Source of the DNA: Herbiconiux sp. SALV-R1
Lineage (GTDB): Bacteria > Actinomycetota > Actinomycetes > Actinomycetales > Microbacteriaceae
DNA length: 64,000 bases
Assembly (NCBI RefSeq): GCF_013113715.1
Contig: NZ_CP053344.1
Location: forward strand, 1,612,001-1,676,000
Reading direction: 5' to 3'
Below the pieces are notes generated by a model. That model saw only the letters and a list, made by a program, of their open reading frames with translations, did not search any database and was not told where the DNA came from. This document shows, piece by piece, positions 15,296 through 36,116 of the stretch. Numbering within the stretch: position 1 is the first letter of the stretch; every line of letters starts with the position of its first letter. A program made the position numbers and the translations under genes.

Positions 15296-17206
15296 CTACC
15301 CGGCGAGGGTGCTGCGGATCGTGCCGGCCAGCTGAGGGCCGATGCCCTTGACCGCCGCGATCGCCTCGACATCGGCCTTCTTGAGCTCGGAGACCGAGCC
15401 GAAGTGGCGTAGCAGCTCGCGCACGCGCGCGGGGCCGAGGCCGGGCACCTCGGTGAGCACGCTCGTGATGTCGCGCTTGCGGCGGGAGCGCTGGTGGGTG
15501 ATGGCGAAGCGGTGGGCCTCGTCACGGATGCGCTGGATCATGAACAGCGCCTCGCTGCCGCGCGGGAGGATGACCGGGTAGTCGCTCTGGGGCAGCCAGA
15601 CCTCCTCGAGGCGCTTGGCGATGCCGGCCAGGAAGATGCCCTGCACCCCCGACTCCTCGAGCGCTCGAGCAGCGGCGTTGACCTGTGGCTGGCCGCCGTC
15701 GACGATGAGCAGATTCGGCGGATAGGAGAACTTCTTGCGCTTGGTGGGCTCGACCGGGCCCTCGCCGTCGCTGAAGATCTGCTCGGCGGCCGCCGCAGCA
15801 TCCGCCGCCTCGCGTTCGGGGTCGGTCTTGAGGTAGGCGAGGCGCCGGGTGATGACCTGGTAGATCGACTCGGTGTCGTCGGTGGAGTCGGCGATGCTGA
15901 ACCGGCGGTACTGGTCTTTGCGGGCGAGCCCGTCTTCGAACACCACCATCGACGCCACGATGTTCGTGCCCGAGAGGTGCGAGACGTCGAAGCACTCCAT
16001 GCGCAGGGGTGCGTCGGTCATGCCGAGCGCCTCCTGGATGTCGGTGAGCGCCTGCGAGCGGGCGACGAAATCGGCCGAGCGACGCGTCTTGTAGAGCATG
16101 AGGTTGTTCTTCGCGTTCATCGACGCGGTCTCCATGAGCGCCGCCTTCTCGCCGCGCTGCGCGGTGCGGAGGATGACGCGGCCCTGCTTCGGGCGCCGGC
16201 CGCCGAGCCAGGCGGCGAGCTCGTCGGAGTCGTCGGGCAGCGCCGGCACGATGATCTCCCGCGGCGGCACCTCGTCGTCGTAGGCCTGCAGCAGGATCGA
16301 GTCGACGAGCTCTCCGGTGTCGACGTCGATCTCCTTGTCGACCGTCCACGAGCGCTCACCGCGGATGCGCCCACCGCGCACGATGAACTGCTGCACGCTG
16401 GCGGCCAGCTCGTCGTGCTCGATGGCGAATAGATCGGTGTCGGCCGAGTCTCGCAGCACCACCGCGCTCTTCGCGAGCACGGCCTCGAGCGCCTGGAGCC
16501 GGTCGCGGAACATCGCCGCGCTCTCGTAGTCCTGTCGCTCTGCCGCCTCGCGCATCCCCTTGGTGGCGGCCGTCACGAAGCGCTTGTCGCCGCCCTCGAG
16601 GAAGGCGACGAAGTCGTCGACCCTGGCGCGGTGCTCCTCGATGGTGACCTTCTGCGAGCAGGGGCCGCCGCAGCGGCCGATCTGGCCGGGGAAGCAGGGG
16701 CGGCCGGTCTGCATGGCCTGCTTGTAGCTCGAGTCGGAGCAGGTGCGGATGGGGAACGCCTTGATCATGAGGTCGATGGTGTCGCGCACCGCCCAGATCT
16801 TCGGATAGGGGCCGAAGTACTTCGCACCCTTGATGCGGTGGTTGCGCGTGACCATCACCCGGGGGGCCTCGTCGCCCAGGGTCACCGCGAGGAACGGGTA
16901 GGTCTTGTCGTCGCGGAACTTGACGTTGAACGGCGGGTTGAACTCCTTGATCCAGGTGTACTCCAGCTGCAGCGACTCGATGTCGGTGCCCACCACCGTC
17001 CACTCCACACCGGCGGCGGTGGTGACCATGCGGCGGGTGCGCTCGTGCAGGCTCCGCAGCGGCGCGAAGTAGTTGCTCAGGCGCGCGCGCAGGTTCTTCG
17101 CCTTGCCGACGTAGAGCACGCGACCACTCGCGTCTTTGAAGCGGTACACCCCGGGCTGGGTGGGGATCTCACCGGCCTTGGGGCGGTAACTGACGGTGTC
17201 TGCCAT
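15296..17206 (-). CDS. uvrC: UvrABC system protein C
   Basis: Makes both incisions around a UvrB-marked DNA lesion. The 636-residue protein has the N-terminal GIY-YIG nuclease ([21 protein letters not shown] near 18-38), the cysteine cluster and UVR motif in the middle, the RNase H-like second nuclease, and C-terminal helix-hairpin-helix repeats ending in [13 protein letters not shown] and [15 protein letters not shown] 17206 is used. Its promoter region contains the same damage-type GTGTCGGTG element as uvrA and uvrB. A 94-base gap separates it from rapZ downstream. Confidence 0.97.
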
Positions 17207-17215
17207 GGTTCAACG

Positions 17216-17237
17216 ATTCTCCCATCCCGCACCGACA
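17216..17237 (-). promoter_or_regulatory. RecA-NDp/PafBC-type promoter of uvrC
   Basis: On the minus strand TGTCGGTG (complement of 17230-17237, preceded by G) is followed by exactly 8 bases and then GAGAAT (complement of 17216-17221). This fits the mycobacterial RecA-NDp form TTGTCRGTG-N8-TAnnnT except for the first base of each block. GAGAAT ends 9 bases before the uvrC ATG, so the leader is absent or very short. Confidence 0.65.
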
Positions 17238-17301
17238 CCGAGGTCGGCTACGGTCGATAGCGCTCGCGATGCGCGGGCCGTGACACGAGAGAGGGCACCG
17301 G

Positions 17302-18747
17302 ATGCCGAAGAAGCGCAGGAGTGGGGCGGCGGGCGGCGGGGCTCGGTCGGGCGGGGGTCGGTCGGGCGGGGGCGCAGGGCGAGCCGGTGCCGGTGGCGCT
17401 GCCGTCACGGCGACGCTGCTGCAGTTCGGGCGGTGGTACCAGCGCCATCTCGACGAGACGGGGTCGGCGCACGACGGCGGCCACGCATCCGGCGACGACA
17501 TCCGGGCGATGCTCGCGACGCTCTTCGAGGTGAGCGGTGGCAGGCTGCGGAGCCCCCGTGCCGAGGTGCTCGAGACCCTGCTCGACCGGGTCGAAGACGA
17601 CGACGGCCTCTGGCCGCGCATGCCCGAGGTGCTCGACGCGCTCGAGCACTACCTCGACTTCGCGGTGGAGAGCGGCAGCTGGGACGCGAGCGACGACGAG
17701 ATCGACGCCAGCGACGAGGTGCTCGCCCTGGCGTCGGAGTCGGGCGGCGGGATGCTCGTGACGCTGATCGAGGCGATGGACGACGTCGACGACGTCGAGC
17801 CCGCCAACGAGCGGCCCGCGCTGCAGGGCTTCGCGGCGGGCGGCGGCACCGCGGAGGGGGTCGCCGACTACATCGACGCCGCGCTGGCCGAGGTGACCGA
17901 TCTCGCGGCCGAGCGGGTGCTCGGGCTGCTCTGCGTGGCGGCCCTGCCGGAGCTCCTCCCGGGGCGCTCGACGGAGCGCATCGTCGCCATGCTCGACGTG
18001 GCGGTCGGGGCGGGCGAGGCCGAGCGACATGATGCCGACGCCGCGACGCACGCCGTGCTCGAGCGGTTCGAGAACGACGGGCTGCTGCGCGCGAGCGCGC
18101 TGCCGGGAAGCGACGAGCAGCGGCTCGAAGCGGCGCCGGGGCTGCGGGGCGTGCTGGCCGACGCGGTGGTCGAGATCGCGGATGCGCGCGGTCTGCTCCC
18201 TGACGCGAATCCGCACGCGCCCGGAACGGGGCTGGCCGTGACGGCGACCGTGGTCGCGCCGGAGGCCACCGCGGAGGGGGCCGTGTGGCGCCGGCTCGTG
18301 TTCGCCGCCGACACCGATCTGGGCGGGGTGCACCTCGCGCTGCAGCTGGCGTTCGAGTGGGACGACGAGCATCCGCACCGGTTCAGGGTGGAGGAGACGG
18401 ATGAGCTGTTCCTCTCGGTCGGGGTGCTGGGCGGGGAGTCGCGGTCGTGGGGCGGGGCGTCGGGGGTCGACCCGAGCGCGGTCGACGACCTGCCCGAGGG
18501 CGCGGAGGACGAGCTGGAGGTGCAGCTCGGGGAGCTGCTCGTCGAGCCGGGCGATGAGCTCGACTACGAATACGACGGTGACGCTGATTCTGGCTCGGGC
18601 GGGTCTGCGGGCGTGCGGGTGCGCATCCGTCTCGAGGAGGTGCTCGAACCGGATGCGGCGCTGGTGCTGCCGCGGTGCGTCGCGTCGTCGGGCGATCAGC
18701 CCGTCGAGGAGATCGACGGGCTGCTCACGCCGCTGCGCCTGCGGTAG
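17302..18747 (+). CDS. Uncharacterised protein with C-terminal pRiA4b ORF-3-like domain
   Basis: A 481-residue acidic protein of unknown function. The first 35 residues are rich in Gly, Arg, Ser and Lys and look disordered. A helical middle follows, beginning LLQFGRWYQRHLDE, with no motif I recognise. The last third (from about DLGGVHLALQLAFEWDDEHPH through LGELLVEPGDELDYEYDG to RIRLEEVLE) matches the pattern of the plasmid pRiA4b ORF-3-like fold, a small domain found in many otherwise uncharacterised bacterial proteins. ATG 17302 has GAGAGAGGG upstream. It is divergent from uvrC by 95 bases and convergent with uvrA with only 23 bases between stops, so it interrupts the uvr genes on the opposite strand. 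Function unknown. Confidence 0.75.
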   Translation: MPKKRRSGAAGGGARSGGGRSGGGAGRAGAGGAAVTATLLQFGRWYQRHLDETGSAHDGGHASGDDIRAMLATLFEVSGGRLRSPRAEVLETLLDRVEDDDGLWPRMPEVLDALEHYLDFAVESGSWDASDDEIDASDEVLALASESGGGMLVTLIEAMDDVDDVEPANERPALQGFAAGGGTAEGVADYIDAALAEVTDLAAERVLGLLCVAALPELLPGRSTERIVAMLDVAVGAGEAERHDADAATHAVLERFENDGLLRASALPGSDEQRLEAAPGLRGVLADAVVEIADARGLLPDANPHAPGTGLAVTATVVAPEATAEGAVWRRLVFAADTDLGGVHLALQLAFEWDDEHPHRFRVEETDELFLSVGVLGGESRSWGGASGVDPSAVDDLPEGAEDELEVQLGELLVEPGDELDYEYDGDADSGSGGSAGVRVRIRLEEVLEPDAALVLPRCVASSGDQPVEEIDGLLTPLRLR

Positions 18748-18770
18748 CGGCGGCCCGGCTCGGGTCGGGT

Positions 18771-21683
<2,913 letters not shown>

Positions 21684-21689
21684 CCCAAA

Positions 21690-21711
21690 AGTCTAAGTCG
21701 ACCCACCGACA
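21690..21711 (-). promoter_or_regulatory. RecA-NDp/PafBC-type promoter of uvrA, leaderless
   Basis: On the minus strand TGTCGGTG (complement of 21704-21711, preceded by G) is followed by exactly 8 bases and then TAGACT (complement of 21690-21695). Six more bases lead to the uvrA GTG. This agrees with the RecA-NDp consensus at every defined position except the first T. Confidence 0.8.
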
Positions 21712-21789
21712 CCGCCCCCCGATTACGCTCACGGCACCATCCCCGGCGCACGCCTTCCCTGCCGCCGGTCGCGTCCCTCTCAGCGAATC

Positions 21790-21856
21790 GACGGAGTTTC
21801 ACCGCCCCGACCCCCTGACACTCCGTCATTCGTCCGATATGGCCCGAAACTCCGTC
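21790..21856. repeat. GACGGAGTTTC...GAAACTCCGTC inverted repeat
   Basis: An 11-bp left arm (21790-21800) is complementary to a right arm at 21846-21856, with a 45-base loop. A second partial right arm, ACTCCGTC, lies at 21820-21827. The same stem, with the paired change TTTC/GAAA to TCTC/GAGA, recurs three times after dnaE2, so this is one member of an intergenic repeat family. Confidence 0.65.
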
Positions 21857-21926
21857 GTTCCGACAGCTACGCGACGGTGCGCGAGCCCGATCGAGACCGG
21901 CCGGGTGGCCGGCGGCACCGCCGGGA

Positions 21927-21989
21927 AACGGTATGAGAATCTCAGGGCCGAGCTCGACAAGGGCTCGGCCCTGAGATTCTCATACCGTT
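21927..21989. terminator. Perfect 27-bp inverted repeat downstream of uvrB
   Basis: Positions 21927-21953 are the exact reverse complement of 21963-21989, with a 9-base loop. It starts 44 bases after the uvrB stop, so it can end uvrB transcripts and insulate uvrA. There is only a short T-run on the uvrB side. The stem is far longer than a usual terminator and is AT-richer than its surroundings. Confidence 0.65.
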
Positions 21990-22032
21990 GCCGACGCGAA
22001 AGGCCGCGAGGCCGGCCGGCCGAGCCGCAGCC

Positions 22033-24102
22033 TCAGGCGATGTGGCCGGCCTTCTCCATCTGGCGGAGTTCGCGTTTGAGTTCGGAGACCTCGTCGCGGA
22101 GGCGGGCGGCGAGTTCGAACTTGAGCTCGGCGGCGGCCTCGAGCATCTGACCGTTGAGGTCGGCGATGATCGACTCGAGGTCGTTGGCACCCTTCGCGGC
22201 GATGCCCTCGCGGCGGAGATTGGGGGTGGGGCTCTTCTTGCCCCGGCCCGAGCGCTCGTTGAGGAGGGCCGCCGTGTCGGCGCCCTCGCGGGCGAGGGCC
22301 TCGGTGATGTCGGCGATGCGCTTGCGCAGCGGCTGCGGGTCGATGCCGTTGGCCCTGTTGTAGGCGATCTGCTTCTCGCGGCGACGGTCGGTCTCGTCGA
22401 TGGCGAGCTGCATCGAGTCGGTCATCTTGTCGGCGTAGAGGTGCACCTCGCCCGAGACGTTTCGGGCGGCACGCCCGATGGTCTGGATGAGCGAGGTCGA
22501 CGAGCGAAGGAACCCCTCCTTGTCGGCGTCGAGGATGGCCACCAGCGACACCTCGGGAAGGTCGAGACCTTCGCGAAGCAGGTTGATGCCCACCAGCACG
22601 TCGTACACCCCGGCGCGCAGCTCGGTGAGGAGCTCGACCCGGCGCAGCGTGTCGACGTCGGAGTGCAGGTAGCGCACCCGCACCCCGGCCTCGGTGAGGA
22701 AGTCGGTGAGCTCCTCCGCCATCTTCTTGGTGAGTGCCGTGACGAGCACTCGCTCGTCGCGCGCGGCCCGCAGCCTGATCTCCTCGAGCAGGTCGTCGAT
22801 CTGCCCCTTCGACGGCTTGATGATGAGCGACGGGTCGACGAGGCCGGTGGGGCGGATGATCTGCTCCACCACCCCGTCGGCGATGCCCATCTCGTAGCGA
22901 CCGGGCGTGGCCGACAGGTACACCGTCTGCCCCACCCGCTCCTTGAACTCGTTCCACTTCAGCGGCCGGTTGTCGAGCGCGCTCGGCAGACGGAAGCCGT
23001 GGTCGACCAGGGTGCGCTTGCGCGACGAGTCGCCCTCGTACATCGCGCCGATCTGCGGCACCGTCACGTGTGACTCGTCGATGACGACGAGGAAGTCGTC
23101 GGGGAAGTAGTCGAGCAGGCAGTGCGGAGCCTCCCCCGGCATGCGCCCGTCGATGTGCCTCGAGTAGTTCTCGATGCCCGAGCAGAAGCCGATCTGCTGC
23201 ATCATCTCGAGGTCGAAGGTGGTGCGCATGCGGAGCCGCTGCGCCTCGAGCAGCTTGCCCTCGCGCTCCAGCTCGGTGAGCCGGTCGTGCAGTTCGGTCT
23301 GGATGGTCTCGATGGCCCGGTGCATGACGTTCGTGTCGGCGACGTAGTGCGAACCCGGGAACACCGACACGCTGTCGAGCTTCTTCACGATGTCGCCCGT
23401 GAGCGGGTGCAGCGCGTAGAGGCCCTCGATCTCGTCGCCGAACATCTCGATGCGGATGGCGAGCTCTTCGTACATCGGGATGATCTCGATGGTGTCGCCC
23501 CGCACCCGGAAGTTGCCGCGCGAGAAGTCGACGTCGTTGCGCTGGTACTGCATCGACACGAAGCGCCGGATGAGCCAGTCGCGGTCGACCCGCTGCCCCA
23601 CCTGCAGCGCCATCATCGCGTTGAGGTACTGCTCGGGTGTTCCCAAGCCGTAGATGCATGACACCGTCGACACCACGACGACGTCGCGCCGCGAGAGCAG
23701 CGAGTTCGTGGTGGAGTGGCGCAGGCGCTCGACCTCGGCGTTGATCGAGGAGTCTTTCTCGATGAAGGTGTCGGTCTGCGGCACGTAGGCCTCGGGCTGG
23801 TAGTAGTCGTAGTACGACACGAAGTACTCGACCGCGTTGTTCGGCATGAGCTCGCGGAACTCGTTCGCGAGCTGCGCCGCCAGGGTCTTGTTGTGCGCGA
23901 GCACGAGCGTGGGCCGCTGCACCTGCTCGATGAGCCAGGCCGTGGTCGCCGACTTTCCCGTACCGGTGGCGCCGAGCAGCACCACGTCGGTCTCACCCGC
24001 GTTGATGCGGCCCGCCAGCTCGGCGATGGCGGCCGGCTGGTCGCCGCTCGGCTGGTATTCACTGACGACCTCGAAGGGGTGCACGGAGCGGGTGGGTTCC
24101 AT
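22033..24102 (-). CDS. uvrB: UvrABC system protein B
   Basis: Damage-verifying helicase of nucleotide excision repair. The 689-residue protein has Walker A GATGTGKS near 44-51, the beta-hairpin sequence [13 protein letters not shown], Walker B VIDESHVT, the helicase motifs [11 protein letters not shown] and QTIGRAARN, and the C-terminal UVR motif that binds UvrC. ATG 24102 follows a TAAACT hexamer by 6 bases with no ribosome-binding site, pointing to a leaderless mRNA. It is divergent from pfkA. Confidence 0.97.
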
Positions 24103-24108
24103 GCATTA

Positions 24109-24130
24109 AGTTTAGGGAGGACCACCGACA
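24109..24130 (-). promoter_or_regulatory. RecA-NDp/PafBC-type promoter of uvrB, leaderless
   Basis: On the minus strand TGTCGGTG (complement of 24123-24130, preceded by G) is followed by exactly 8 bases, then TAAACT (complement of 24109-24114), then 6 bases to the uvrB ATG. This is the same architecture as uvrA, with a different spacer sequence, so the match is not simple duplication. Confidence 0.8.
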
Positions 24131-24225
24131 CCAGCGTCGGTGCTCGCTCACAGCGTGAGCGCCCGCCCGCACCCGGCAGCGCGCGGGCTCCCAACCTCAT
24201 CCACCACATCGAGGCAGGCATCACC

Positions 24226-34324: not shown

Positions 34325-36001
34325 TCAGGCCAGGAGGGTGGAGCGGAGGGTGTCGAGGCCGACGCCACCGAGGTCGAGGGCGCGGCGGTGGAACTCCTTC
34401 GAGGAGAAGGCCTCCTTGTCGCGGGCGCGGGTCTCGTCGCGGATCTGCTCCCAGATGCGCTGGCCGACCTTGTAGCTGGGGGCCTGACCGGGCCAGCCGA
34501 GGTAGCGGTTCACCTCGAAACGGATGAAGGCGTCGTCCATATTCACGTTCTGGCGCATGAAGGCGAGAGCGTACTCCGCATCCCACACCCCGGAGCCGTC
34601 GAGGCGCGGCTTGCCGAGGTGCACGCCGATGTCGAGCACCACGCGGGCAGCGCGCATGCGCTGGCCGTCGAGCATGCCGAGACGGTCGGCGGGGTCGTCG
34701 AGGTACCCGAGCTCCTCCATGAGGCGTTCGGCGTAGAGCGCCCAGCCCTCGGCGTGGCCGCTGGTGCCGGCGAGCTGGCGCCGCCAGGTGTTGAGCGTCG
34801 CCCGGTTGTAGACGGCCTGGCCGATCTGCAGGTGATGGCCGGGAACGCCCTCGTGGTAGACGGTGGTGAGCTCGCGCCAGGTGTCGAACTCGGTGACGCC
34901 CTCGGGAACCGACCACCACATGCGGCCGGGGCGCGAGAAGTCGTCGGTGGGGCCGGTGTAGTAGATGCCGCCCTCGGTGGTGGGGGCGATCATGCACTCG
35001 AGGGTGCGGATCTCGGCGGGGATGTCGAAGTGGGTGGCCCCGAGCTCGGCCACGGCGCGGTCGCTGGTCTCCTGCATCCAGGCCTTGAGGGCCGCGGTGC
35101 CGTGGAGCTTGCGGCTCTGGTCGCCGTCGAGGTGGGCGATGGCCTCGGCCACGGAGGCGCCGGGGAGGATCTCCTCGGCGATCGCCTCCTGCTCGCGCAC
35201 CATGCGGCCGAGCTCCTCGATGCCCCACTCGTAGGTCTCGTCGAGGTCGATGGTGGCGCCGAGGAAGCGCCGCGACTGCAGGGCGTAGAGCTCGCGGCCG
35301 ACGGCGTCGTCGAGGGTGGCGGCGGGCGCGAGCTCGTTCTCGAGGAACTGGGCGAGCTTGGAGTACGACTCCGAGGCGGTGCCCGCCGCGCGCTCGAGAT
35401 CGGCTCTGAGCGACGCGGGCAGCTCGCCCTCGGTGGGGGCGGCCCCGGCGACGAGGGTGCTGAAGAAGTTGTCGGGGCCGGAGTTCTTGCGCACCTGGGC
35501 GAGCACCTCGGCGACCTGGCGCCTGGCCGGGGTGACGCCCTTGCGCATGCCCTCCCGCAGCGTGACGATGTAGCCGTCGACCGCCTCCTCCACCGCGCCC
35601 AGCCGCCTGGCCACGACGGCCCAGTCGTCGACCGTGCCGGTGGGCATGAGGTCGAAGACCTCGCGGATGTGCTGGCTGGGCGAGTCGATGACGTTGAGGT
35701 CGCGCAGGTGAAGCCGGGCGTCGGAGCTCGCCATGGTGAGTCGCAGCTCAGCGGAGAGGTCGGTCTTGGTGACCTCGTCGACGGCGTCGACGGCCTCGGC
35801 CCGTGCCAGCTCGGCGAGGGTGGAGGAGACGGCGGCGACCTCCCGCTCGTGCCCCTCGGGCGAGAGGTCGCCGTAGCGGTCGTTCGCCTCGGTGCGCCCG
35901 ATGTAGGTGCCGATCACCGGCTGGAGGTCGACGAGGGTGTCGACCCAGCGCTCGGCGATGCGGTCGATCTCGGTCTGGGGGCGTTCGGCGGGGCTGCTCA
36001 T
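34325..36001 (-). CDS. DUF885 family protein (putative metallopeptidase)
   Basis: A 558-residue protein with the DUF885 hallmark HEGVPGHH at 383-390, a zinc-binding variant of the HExxH motif, preceded by ELTTVYHEG and followed by the conserved GHAEGWALYAERLMEELG. Family members are thought to be zinc carboxypeptidase-like enzymes; the substrate is unknown. There is no signal peptide, so it is probably cytoplasmic. I chose ATG 36001 (MSSPAERPQ), because the frame upstream to 36241 runs antisense over imuA and its LexA site. A TAGGGT 7 bases upstream may be a -10 or the ribosome-binding site. It is divergent from imuA by 121 bases. Confidence 0.85.
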   Translation of the reverse strand: MSSPAERPQTEIDRIAERWVDTLVDLQPVIGTYIGRTEANDRYGDLSPEGHEREVAAVSSTLAELARAEAVDAVDEVTKTDLSAELRLTMASSDARLHLRDLNVIDSPSQHIREVFDLMPTGTVDDWAVVARRLGAVEEAVDGYIVTLREGMRKGVTPARRQVAEVLAQVRKNSGPDNFFSTLVAGAAPTEGELPASLRADLERAAGTASESYSKLAQFLENELAPAATLDDAVGRELYALQSRRFLGATIDLDETYEWGIEELGRMVREQEAIAEEILPGASVAEAIAHLDGDQSRKLHGTAALKAWMQETSDRAVAELGATHFDIPAEIRTLECMIAPTTEGGIYYTGPTDDFSRPGRMWWSVPEGVTEFDTWRELTTVYHEGVPGHHLQIGQAVYNRATLNTWRRQLAGTSGHAEGWALYAERLMEELGYLDDPADRLGMLDGQRMRAARVVLDIGVHLGKPRLDGSGVWDAEYALAFMRQNVNMDDAFIRFEVNRYLGWPGQAPSYKVGQRIWEQIRDETRARDKEAFSSKEFHRRALDLGGVGLDTLRSTLLA

Positions 36002-36033
36002 GTGACCGACCCTACGACACCGCACCGACATCG

Positions 36034-36055
36034 TGTCAGTGGTCGATGGCAGCCT
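36034..36055 (+). promoter_or_regulatory. RecA-NDp/PafBC-like distal promoter of imuA
   Basis: TGTCAGTG (36034-36041, preceded by G) is followed by exactly 8 bases and CAGCCT (36050-36055). The -35-like block fits the R=A form of the RecA-NDp consensus; the -10 keeps only A2 and T6. It would give a leader of about 60 bases that includes the LexA site. Confidence 0.5.
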
Positions 36056-36087
36056 GTGGAGAGCTTTCCACAGGGCTTCGACCGCAA

Positions 36088-36116
36088 TTGACTTCCTCGA
36101 ACATATGTTCGAATAT
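36088..36116 (+). promoter_or_regulatory. imuA promoter with perfect LexA (SOS) box
   Basis: TCGAACATATGTTCGA at 36097-36112 is a perfect 16-bp palindrome matching the Gram-positive and actinobacterial LexA box. It sits between TTGACT (36088-36093) and GAATAT (36111-36116), which are spaced by exactly 17 bases, and overlaps the -10, so LexA would block polymerase directly. GAATAT ends 6 bases before the imuA ATG, predicting a leaderless mRNA. Confidence 0.93.

What the first reader, a model, noticed from the sequence alone, without database searches (positions are those of the whole stretch)
17216..24130. uvrA, uvrB and uvrC share a RecA-NDp/PafBC-type promoter
Three separate promoters carry GTGTCGGTG, exactly 8 bases, then a -10 (TAGACT, TAAACT, GAGAAT). 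The 8-base spacers differ, so this is not recent duplication. The pattern matches the LexA-independent RecA-NDp promoter (TTGTCRGTG-N8-TAnnnT) used by the WYL-domain activator PafBC in mycobacteria. It predicts that nucleotide excision repair is PafBC-controlled here, with a lineage consensus starting G rather than T. No LexA box is seen at these genes.
Basis: partly seen in the sequence, partly recalled or inferred. Interest (0 to 1): 0.8.

Follow-up and report, generated by a model that had tools for sequence, protein, structure and literature searches.

The report
PafBC-type leaderless promoters of excision-repair genes
Three DNA-repair genes of this actinobacterium appear to be switched on after DNA damage by the known activator PafBC, from promoters placed so close to two of the genes that their messages should begin directly at the start codon, a layout that turns out to be common for this promoter type in related bacteria.

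Summary
GTGTCGGTG-N8-(-10) lies upstream of uvrC, uvrA and uvrB (3 sites; 0.04 expected). The PafBC (RecA-NDp-type) reading is well supported: the genome encodes adjacent PafB and PafC, recA carries the same promoter plus a LexA-like box, and many genome-wide sites lead to repair genes (mfd, dinB, AlkZ-like, mnmA-ligA, UvrD-type helicase; looser sites: ada-alkA, tag, rmuC, recG, rarA, xthA). PafBC control of UvrABC is already reported for M. smegmatis, so this is a new member of a known kind. Two corrections: the conserved element is TGTCRGTGG (the base before it is G 9, A 7, C 3, T 0 in 19 sites), so 'G instead of T' is not a consensus; and the sites differ in age (uvrB across genera, uvrA throughout the genus, uvrC, with a poor -10, patchy). 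In 52 genomes 601 of 1169 strict sites (51%) have this geometry, against about 6% by chance and 19-26% published for actinobacterial genes. Streptomyces oceani has many sites, although a paper reported the motif as not conserved in S. venezuelae. Induction and start sites are untested.

The parts
24109..24131 (-). PafBC-type promoter of uvrB: TGTCGGTG 24130-24123, N8, -10 TAAACT 24114-24109
   Evidence: exact in 12 of 13 usable same-genus genomes besides the own one and in 15 of 48 named uvrB loci, all 15 with a start codon at +6/+7
22033..24102 (-). uvrB CDS, ATG 6 nt after the -10 (predicted leaderless)
   Evidence: TIGR00631 and NF003673 over cut-off
21690..21712 (-). PafBC-type promoter of uvrA: TGTCGGTG 21711-21704, N8, -10 TAGACT 21695-21690
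   Evidence: exact in 13 of 16 genus members (own included), TGTCGGAG in the other 3
18771..21683 (-). uvrA CDS, GTG 6 nt after the -10 (predicted leaderless)
   Evidence: TIGR00630 and NF001503 over cut-off
17216..17238 (-). PafBC-type promoter of uvrC: TGTCGGTG 17237-17230, N8, weak -10 GAGAAT 17221-17216
   Evidence: of 15 genus members (own included) 6 exact, 5 with one mismatch, 4 without
15296..17206 (-). uvrC CDS, ATG 9 nt after the -10 (leader of about 3 nt predicted)
   Evidence: TIGR00194 and NF001824 over cut-off
35999..36030 (-). Fourth PafBC-type site of the window, ATGTCGGTG-N8-TAGGGT-N7-ATG, before a DUF885-family gene
   Evidence: PF05960
36098..36111 (.). Perfect LexA box CGAACATATGTTCG before an imuA-position gene, an imuB-like (IMS family) gene and a DnaE-type polymerase gene (plus strand); 67 bp from the divergent PafBC-type site; marks the separate SOS arm
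   Evidence: the imuA-position protein had no Pfam match

Best explanation
uvrA, uvrB and, less certainly, uvrC are each transcribed from their own PafBC-dependent (RecA-NDp-type) promoter. After DNA damage, single-stranded DNA binds the WYL domains of the PafB-PafC heterodimer. PafB then holds the TGTCRGTGG element at about -26, PafC bridges to domain 4 of the housekeeping sigma factor, and RNA polymerase starts 6-7 nt after the TAnnnT -10. At uvrA and uvrB that start is the start codon, so the mRNA should be leaderless. Shown here: the sites, the spacing, the regulator genes, the genome-wide distribution and its conservation. Taken from work on mycobacteria: ssDNA sensing, sigma adaptation, activation. 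Inferred: the transcription starts, leaderless translation, and PafBC dependence in this organism.
For: 3 sites vs 0.04 expected. Own genome: 20 strict TGTCRGTG-N8-TAnnnT sites vs 0 with the pattern reversed. With the spacer free (5-11) and an ATG 4-8 nt after the -10, all 12 matches with TAnnnT have N8. Start codon at +6/+7 in 12 of 19 strict sites examined. 7 of the 12 strict leaderless genes are repair genes or head a repair operon: uvrA, uvrB, mfd, dinB, AlkZ-like glycosylase, UvrD-type helicase, mnmA-ligA. recA has the same promoter 123 nt upstream. PafB and PafC match 6sj9, 7p5x and 9fnd; PafC has HTH_PafC. The PafB stretch with FERDK is shared by the own genome and all 15 motif-rich named genomes. 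52 genomes: 1169 strict sites vs 24 reversed, 601 leaderless. uvrB transcript in M. smegmatis falls 37% in a pafBC mutant (PMC5656591, passage); UvrABC is named in the PafBC regulon (PMC8223512, passages).
Against: No expression data for this organism. The uvrC -10 is poor and its site is absent in 4 of 15 genus members. In the named loci the exact element stands before uvrA in 1 of 21 and before uvrC in 0 of 13. The named genomes of Corynebacterium, Mobiluncus and Bifidobacterium (2) have PafBC-like or weaker WYL open frames but 0-1 strict sites each, and a Rothia MAG has the FERDK stretch but no strict site, so regulator and motif are not perfectly coupled. 5 of the 12 strict leaderless genes have no known repair role (esterase-like, acyl-CoA dehydrogenase family, 80-aa protein, M4 peptidase, DUF885). 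Leaderless geometry is not universal: M. tuberculosis Rv1955 has a RecA-NDp start about 50 nt before its start codon (PMC2897130, passages), and recA here has a long leader.
Confidence: 0.88

Rival explanations
1. A different activator reads this element. ClgR (ClpR-like) was earlier claimed to recognise the RecA-independent promoter motif in mycobacteria.
For: A 2011 paper with that claim appears in a reference list seen (title only; the paper itself was not read).
Against: Immunoprecipitation and structural work places PafBC on the motif (abstracts and passages). PafBC is present here and the PafB FERDK stretch is in all motif-rich named genomes examined. clgR was not searched for here.
Confidence: 0.05
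2. Ordinary leaderless sigma-A promoters; the TGTCRGTG matches are incidental.
For: Actinobacteria have many leaderless genes: 26% of M. tuberculosis genes with a primary TSS (PMC3898074, passages) and 19.2% predicted on average (PMC3160421, passages).
Against: 20 vs 0 for the reversed pattern in this genome, fixed N8, repair enrichment, conservation at uvrB across genera.
Confidence: 0.03
3. uvrA and uvrB are PafBC targets, but the uvrC match is a decayed or just-forming site with little activity, uvrC being read mainly through from upstream.
For: GAGAAT -10; of 15 genus members 6 exact, 4 with nothing; in some relatives uvrC follows closely on an upstream stop codon (by reading).
Against: GAGAAT or AAGAAT at the same spacing is kept also in the 5 members with a one-base change; of 13 genomes outside the genus one (L198) has a leaderless uvrC with the exact element and another (L197) with a one-base variant.
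Confidence: 0.3

Closest known systems
Mycobacterial PafBC regulon / RecA-NDp promoter (Gamulin 2004, cited not read; PMC8223512, PMC11804915, PMC6789036, PMC5656591, abstracts or passages)
   Different: Own-genome sites tolerate any base at position 7 and avoid T before TGTC; next base G in 17 of 19. In mycobacteria uvrA and uvrC are also under the SOS regulon (PMC8223512, passage); here no LexA box was found at either. No proteasome gene recognised in the 12 kb around pafBC
Streptomyces RecA-NDp promoters (SCO6735 and recA; PMC5087735, passages)
   Same: Same promoter type at damage-related genes in another actinobacterial family
   Different: The passages read treat recA and macrodomain genes; here 25 strict sites vs 1 reversed in S. 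oceani, 11 of them leaderless vs 0 reversed
LexA SOS regulon
   Same: Damage-responsive repair genes; in this window a perfect LexA box precedes an imuA-position/imuB-like/DnaE-type cassette
   Different: No LexA box at uvrA or uvrC and none nearer than a 2-mismatch site about 210 bp upstream at uvrB

Membership tests
PafBC-dependent (RecA-NDp-type) promoter | TGTCRGTG element, 8-nt spacer, TAnnnT -10 | tested here: met
   uvrA and uvrB exact; uvrC has the element and spacing but -10 GAGAAT, so not fully met there; N8 in 12 of 12 TAnnnT matches when the spacer is free
PafBC-dependent (RecA-NDp-type) promoter | PafB and PafC encoded in the genome | tested here: met
   Adjacent at G000:C1 about 1,569,730-1,571,770; WYL and WCX domains in both, HTH_PafC in PafC; PDB matches 6sj9, 7p5x, 9fnd
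PafBC-dependent (RecA-NDp-type) promoter | PafB helix-turn-helix with the DNA-reading residues of characterised PafB | tested here: inconclusive
   RQFERDKDDIRELG here, RMFERDKNELRDLG in the mycobacterial structures; which residues touch DNA was not checked
PafBC-dependent (RecA-NDp-type) promoter | Motif concentrated upstream of recA and other repair genes | tested here: met
   7 of 12 strict leaderless genes repair-linked, recA with a leader
PafBC-dependent (RecA-NDp-type) promoter | Damage induction that needs PafBC and not RecA/LexA | not testable with these tools
   Needs RNA data from wild type and mutants
PafBC-dependent (RecA-NDp-type) promoter | pafBC linked to Pup-proteasome genes (typical, not defining) | tested here: not met
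   12 kb around pafBC holds TatC, DSHCT helicase, TrmI-like, HAD and Lnt genes; no proteasome gene recognised; the rest of the genome was not searched for them
Leaderless genes | -10 about 6-7 nt before the start codon | tested here: met
   uvrA +6, uvrB +6; uvrC +9, so only nearly met there
Leaderless genes | Mapped 5' end at the start codon | not testable with these tools
   No RNA data held

The most novel reading that the evidence does not exclude
PafBC promoters across Actinomycetes, Streptomyces included, are preferentially built as leaderless promoters, so the main LexA-independent damage regulon would be routed largely through leaderless translation and could keep being made when Shine-Dalgarno initiation falls under stress. 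The two signals together (TGTCRGTG-N8-TAnnnT-N6/7-RTG) would predict targets and true start codons with few false matches: 601 hits against 2 with the pattern reversed in 52 genomes.
Probability: 0.5. Interest if true: 0.6.

Novelty: new member of a known kind. Interest (0 to 1): 0.42.

Why it matters
It extends the PafBC damage response, worked out in mycobacteria, to a lineage (probably Microbacteriaceae, inferred from UvrB identities of 83-85% to Microbacterium, Curtobacterium and Microcella) for which one library search found no paper, and gives a specific predictor of targets and start codons. It also bears on an open question: a 2022 study (PMC9380542, passage) found in an initial search that the M. 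smegmatis motif is not conserved in Streptomyces venezuelae and left open whether Streptomyces has such a response; the counts here suggest that it does and name a cheap test.

Tried and rejected
G-first consensus: rejected on base counts. LexA control of uvrABC: not supported. Perfect LexA-box search over the genome (17 places, all looked at by the first 45 residues of the nearest long frames): only the imuA-position site looked like an SOS promoter by eye; lexA itself was not searched for. Alternative spacings: with nAnnnT as -10, of 33 matches 22 fit N8, 4 fit N5, 2 fit N9 and 7 fit N11 (some fit two); with TAnnnT only N8. Strict motif-regulator coupling: not strict; the FERDK scan covers only the DNA around each PafC-like hit, so an absence there is weak. 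The reversed-pattern control does not keep codon bias. Dropped rows: one search covered 25 named genomes (Planomonospora was not held); 17 went into the pool of 52, the other 8 (Mobiluncus, two Bifidobacterium, two Acidimicrobiia, Halobacillus, two Pseudomonas) have 5 strict sites against 15 reversed. One search was given 50 of the 80 loci. Of the 36 matches one (C1:4266032) was not examined. Literature: PafBC+leaderless gave 2 papers, one opened, where PafBC stands only in the reference list, the other not opened; leaderless+DNA damage+RecA-independent gave 4, two opened in part; a 3-of-4-terms search gave 181, of which 15 were listed and five opened in part (PMC9380542, PMC3160421, PMC11804915, PMC3898074, PMC6789036); DNA damage+Microbacteriaceae+PafB gave 0.
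Full report
OBSERVATION. The pattern GTGTCGGTG-N8-nAnnnT occurs 3 times in the window and 0.04 times on average in shuffles, before uvrC, uvrA and uvrB (identities). Reading on to the genes shows something further: 6 nt after the -10 comes the start codon of uvrA (GTG) and of uvrB (ATG), and 9 nt after it that of uvrC. A bacterial start site lies about 6-7 nt after the -10 (general knowledge), so uvrA and uvrB should give leaderless mRNA and uvrC nearly so.

OWN GENOME. The window lies in a 4.52-Mb genome. The strict pattern TGTCRGTG-N8-TAnnnT has 20 matches, 0 when reversed. A looser leaderless pattern, TGTCNGTG-N8-nAnnnT-N5-8-RTG, has 29 matches, 0 reversed; eight of the 29 open only a frame of 61 aa or less and are likely chance as leaderless genes (L041, L044, L048, L051, L055, L057, L065, L066), though the L048 site is in fact the recA promoter, whose start codon lies further on. 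Although position 5 was left free, 28 of 29 had A or G there. When the spacer is free between 5 and 11 and an ATG is required, all 12 matches with a TAnnnT -10 have a spacer of 8; with nAnnnT, 22 of 33 fit N8. In the 19 of 20 strict sites whose DNA I held, a start triplet stands at +6 in 8 and at +7 in 4; other distances up to 59 have 0-3 each. At an assumed 6% by chance this has a binomial probability near 7e-11.

GENES. The 12 strict leaderless genes are uvrA, uvrB, mfd, dinB (DNA polymerase IV), an AlkZ-like glycosylase, a UvrD-type helicase, mnmA (with a frame resembling the ligA N-terminus right after it, by reading), and five without a known repair role: an esterase-like protein, an acyl-CoA dehydrogenase-family protein, an 80-aa protein, an M4 peptidase and a DUF885 protein. 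If 3% of genes were repair genes (an assumed figure), 7 of 12 would have a probability of 1.5e-8, and 6 of 12 (mnmA not counted) 6e-7. With a looser -10, ada-alkA-like, rmuC and tag follow. With one mismatch allowed and an ATG at +6 there are 36 matches (7 exact), 0 reversed; among the new ones are recG, rarA, xthA, an RNase_T-type exonuclease, a photoproduct-lyase-like protein and ftsK, beside others with no repair link that I named only by reading (TatB-like, ABC- and MFS-transporter-like, DsbA-like). In 12 of the 29 one-mismatch sites the change is at position 7 of the element, to A, C or G. recA lies 123 nt after a strict site and also has a LexA-like box with one mismatch upstream of it, similar to the two promoters described for mycobacterial recA (passage).

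REGULATOR. Two adjacent overlapping genes encode PafB (335 aa) and PafC (344 aa). Both match the Arthrobacter PafBC crystal structure 6sj9 and the mycobacterial complexes 7p5x and 9fnd; PafC has the HTH_PafC domain. Neighbours are TatC, a DSHCT helicase, a TrmI-like methyltransferase and others; no proteasome or pupylation gene was recognised in the 12 kb; elsewhere they were not searched for.

RELATIVES. I scanned 50 of the 80 named loci. For uvrB, 15 of 48 with usable upstream DNA carry the exact element with a TAnnnT -10, all 15 with the start codon at +6 or +7: Curtobacterium, Microcella, Arthrobacter, Peterkaempfera, Phycicoccus, Actinotalea, Nostocoides, Planomonospora, Microlunatus, Mycolicibacterium, two Nocardioides, Nocardia, a Propionibacteriales MAG and an Aeromicrobium MAG. 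Among L068-L098 that is 15 of 29; those without include Microbacterium commune, Streptomyces oceani, Saccharothrix, Hamadaea, Rothia, Corynebacterium, Mobiluncus, two Bifidobacterium and five MAGs. None of the 19 loci L099-L117 (Acidimicrobiia, Firmicutes, other phyla and some actinobacterial MAGs) has it. In the same named loci uvrA has it in 1 of 21 (Microbacterium commune) and uvrC in 0 of 13. Within the genus, uvrB keeps the exact site in 12 of 13 usable genomes besides the own one (the thirteenth has one change; a fourteenth stretch did not reach the promoter), uvrA in 13 of 16 with TGTCGGAG in the other 3, uvrC in 6 of 15 with one-base variants in 5 and nothing in 4. Outside the genus but within the order, uvrA has the exact element in 5 of 12 and uvrC in 1 of 13 genomes. 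The three sites therefore have separate histories, which excludes recent duplication.

CLASS-WIDE COUNTS. Of 296 genomes drawn from the phylum, all 35 of the window's own class (own genome included) have strict sites, 875 in all against 19 reversed; 121 of 261 outside the class have at least one. I did not sum the outside rows; by eye most are 0-3 with similar reversed counts, the largest being 11. Of 20 named genomes that I take to be Actinomycetes, 17 have 294 sites against 5 reversed, and the three left out of the pool (Mobiluncus, two Bifidobacterium) have 1 against 2. Over the pooled 52 genomes, 601 of 1169 strict sites (51%) are followed by RTG at +6/+7, against 2 for the reversed leaderless pattern. 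Published leaderless shares are 26% of M. tuberculosis genes with a primary start site (PMC3898074, passages) and 19.2% predicted on average in Actinobacteria (PMC3160421, passages); definitions differ, so the roughly twofold excess is provisional. It is not universal: M. [quoted passage not shown] Downstream genes in 29 leaderless loci, one from each of 29 of the 52 genomes (none from family f5), include RecR, AlkZ-like, LigA and RecG (Pfam), UvrB three times (by reading; they are uvrB loci), two calcineurin-type phosphoesterases resembling SbcD, a RadA-like ATPase, an RNase_T exonuclease and DUF222 proteins three times; the remaining 15 of 29 have no repair or DUF222 assignment.

STREPTOMYCES. 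PMC9380542 (passages) states that an initial search suggested the M. smegmatis motif is not conserved in S. venezuelae. S. oceani has 25 strict sites against 1 reversed, 11 of them leaderless against 0; Peterkaempfera, which I recall as a relative, has 45 against 1 and 15 leaderless against 1. An unnamed large-genome family (f5, 11 genomes) has 514, of which 243 leaderless. Another paper had already described RecA-NDp promoters at recA and macrodomain genes in Streptomyces (PMC5087735, passages). I could not list the S. oceani target genes, and its uvrB lacks the site.

WHAT DOES NOT FIT. PafBC-like open frames exist in Corynebacterium, Mobiluncus and Rothia, and weaker WYL matches in two Bifidobacterium, with 0-1 strict sites each. 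The PafB stretch FERDK is in the own genome and all 15 motif-rich named genomes and was not found in Corynebacterium, Mobiluncus and two Bifidobacterium, but it is in Rothia and two Acidimicrobiia that lack the motif. So the element may have diverged or the regulon shrunk in some lines.

MECHANISM AND STANDING. From mycobacterial work (PMC11804915, abstract and passages): ssDNA activates PafBC, PafB reads the -26 element, PafC contacts sigma-A domain 4. The spacing here places TGTCRGTG at about -28 to -21, in agreement. UvrABC as PafBC targets, and RecA-NDp promoters beyond mycobacteria, are already in print (PMC8223512, passages). The finding is thus a new member of a known kind, with one feature, leaderless geometry of the promoter class, that I did not find discussed in the searches within the open-licence library; those miss subscription journals, including the main regulon papers (cited, not read).

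Noticed in passing
window 35999-36111: A PafBC-type leaderless promoter (minus strand, DUF885 gene) and a perfect LexA box (plus strand, before an imuA-position/imuB-like/DnaE-type cassette) lie 67 bp apart back to back: the two damage responses on one intergenic stretch.
   Followed up: partly
window 21927-21989: Perfect inverted repeat with 27-nt arms and a 9-nt loop between uvrB and uvrA (read by eye); no clear T run seen, perhaps a terminator of uvrB or a mobile-element remnant.
   Followed up: no
G000:C1:1199452-1199613 (L049, L050), 2128809-2128918 (L057, L058), 1996537-1996613 (L286): Three pairs of back-to-back divergent PafBC-type sites (some with loose -10s), at ada-alkA/M4 peptidase, at rmuC, and at two uncharacterised genes.
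   Followed up: partly
L040, L047, L063, L067, L293: Small proteins (DUF7882, 80 aa, DUF3263, 70 aa, DUF3072) behind leaderless PafBC-type sites, strict at L047 and L293 and with a loose -10 at the others: candidate unknown damage-response proteins.
   Followed up: no
family f15 (G007, G022, G037, G048, G059, G070, G081, G092, G103): One unnamed family outside the window's class has 51 strict sites against 3 reversed in 9 genomes, so the promoter type may reach beyond the class.
   Followed up: no
L165, L169 (from Acidimicrobiia records): PafB-like proteins with the FERDK stretch in genomes without the motif; they may read a different element.
   Followed up: no
L310, L312, L313: DUF222 genes recur behind leaderless PafBC-type promoters in three genomes of family f6.
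   Followed up: no
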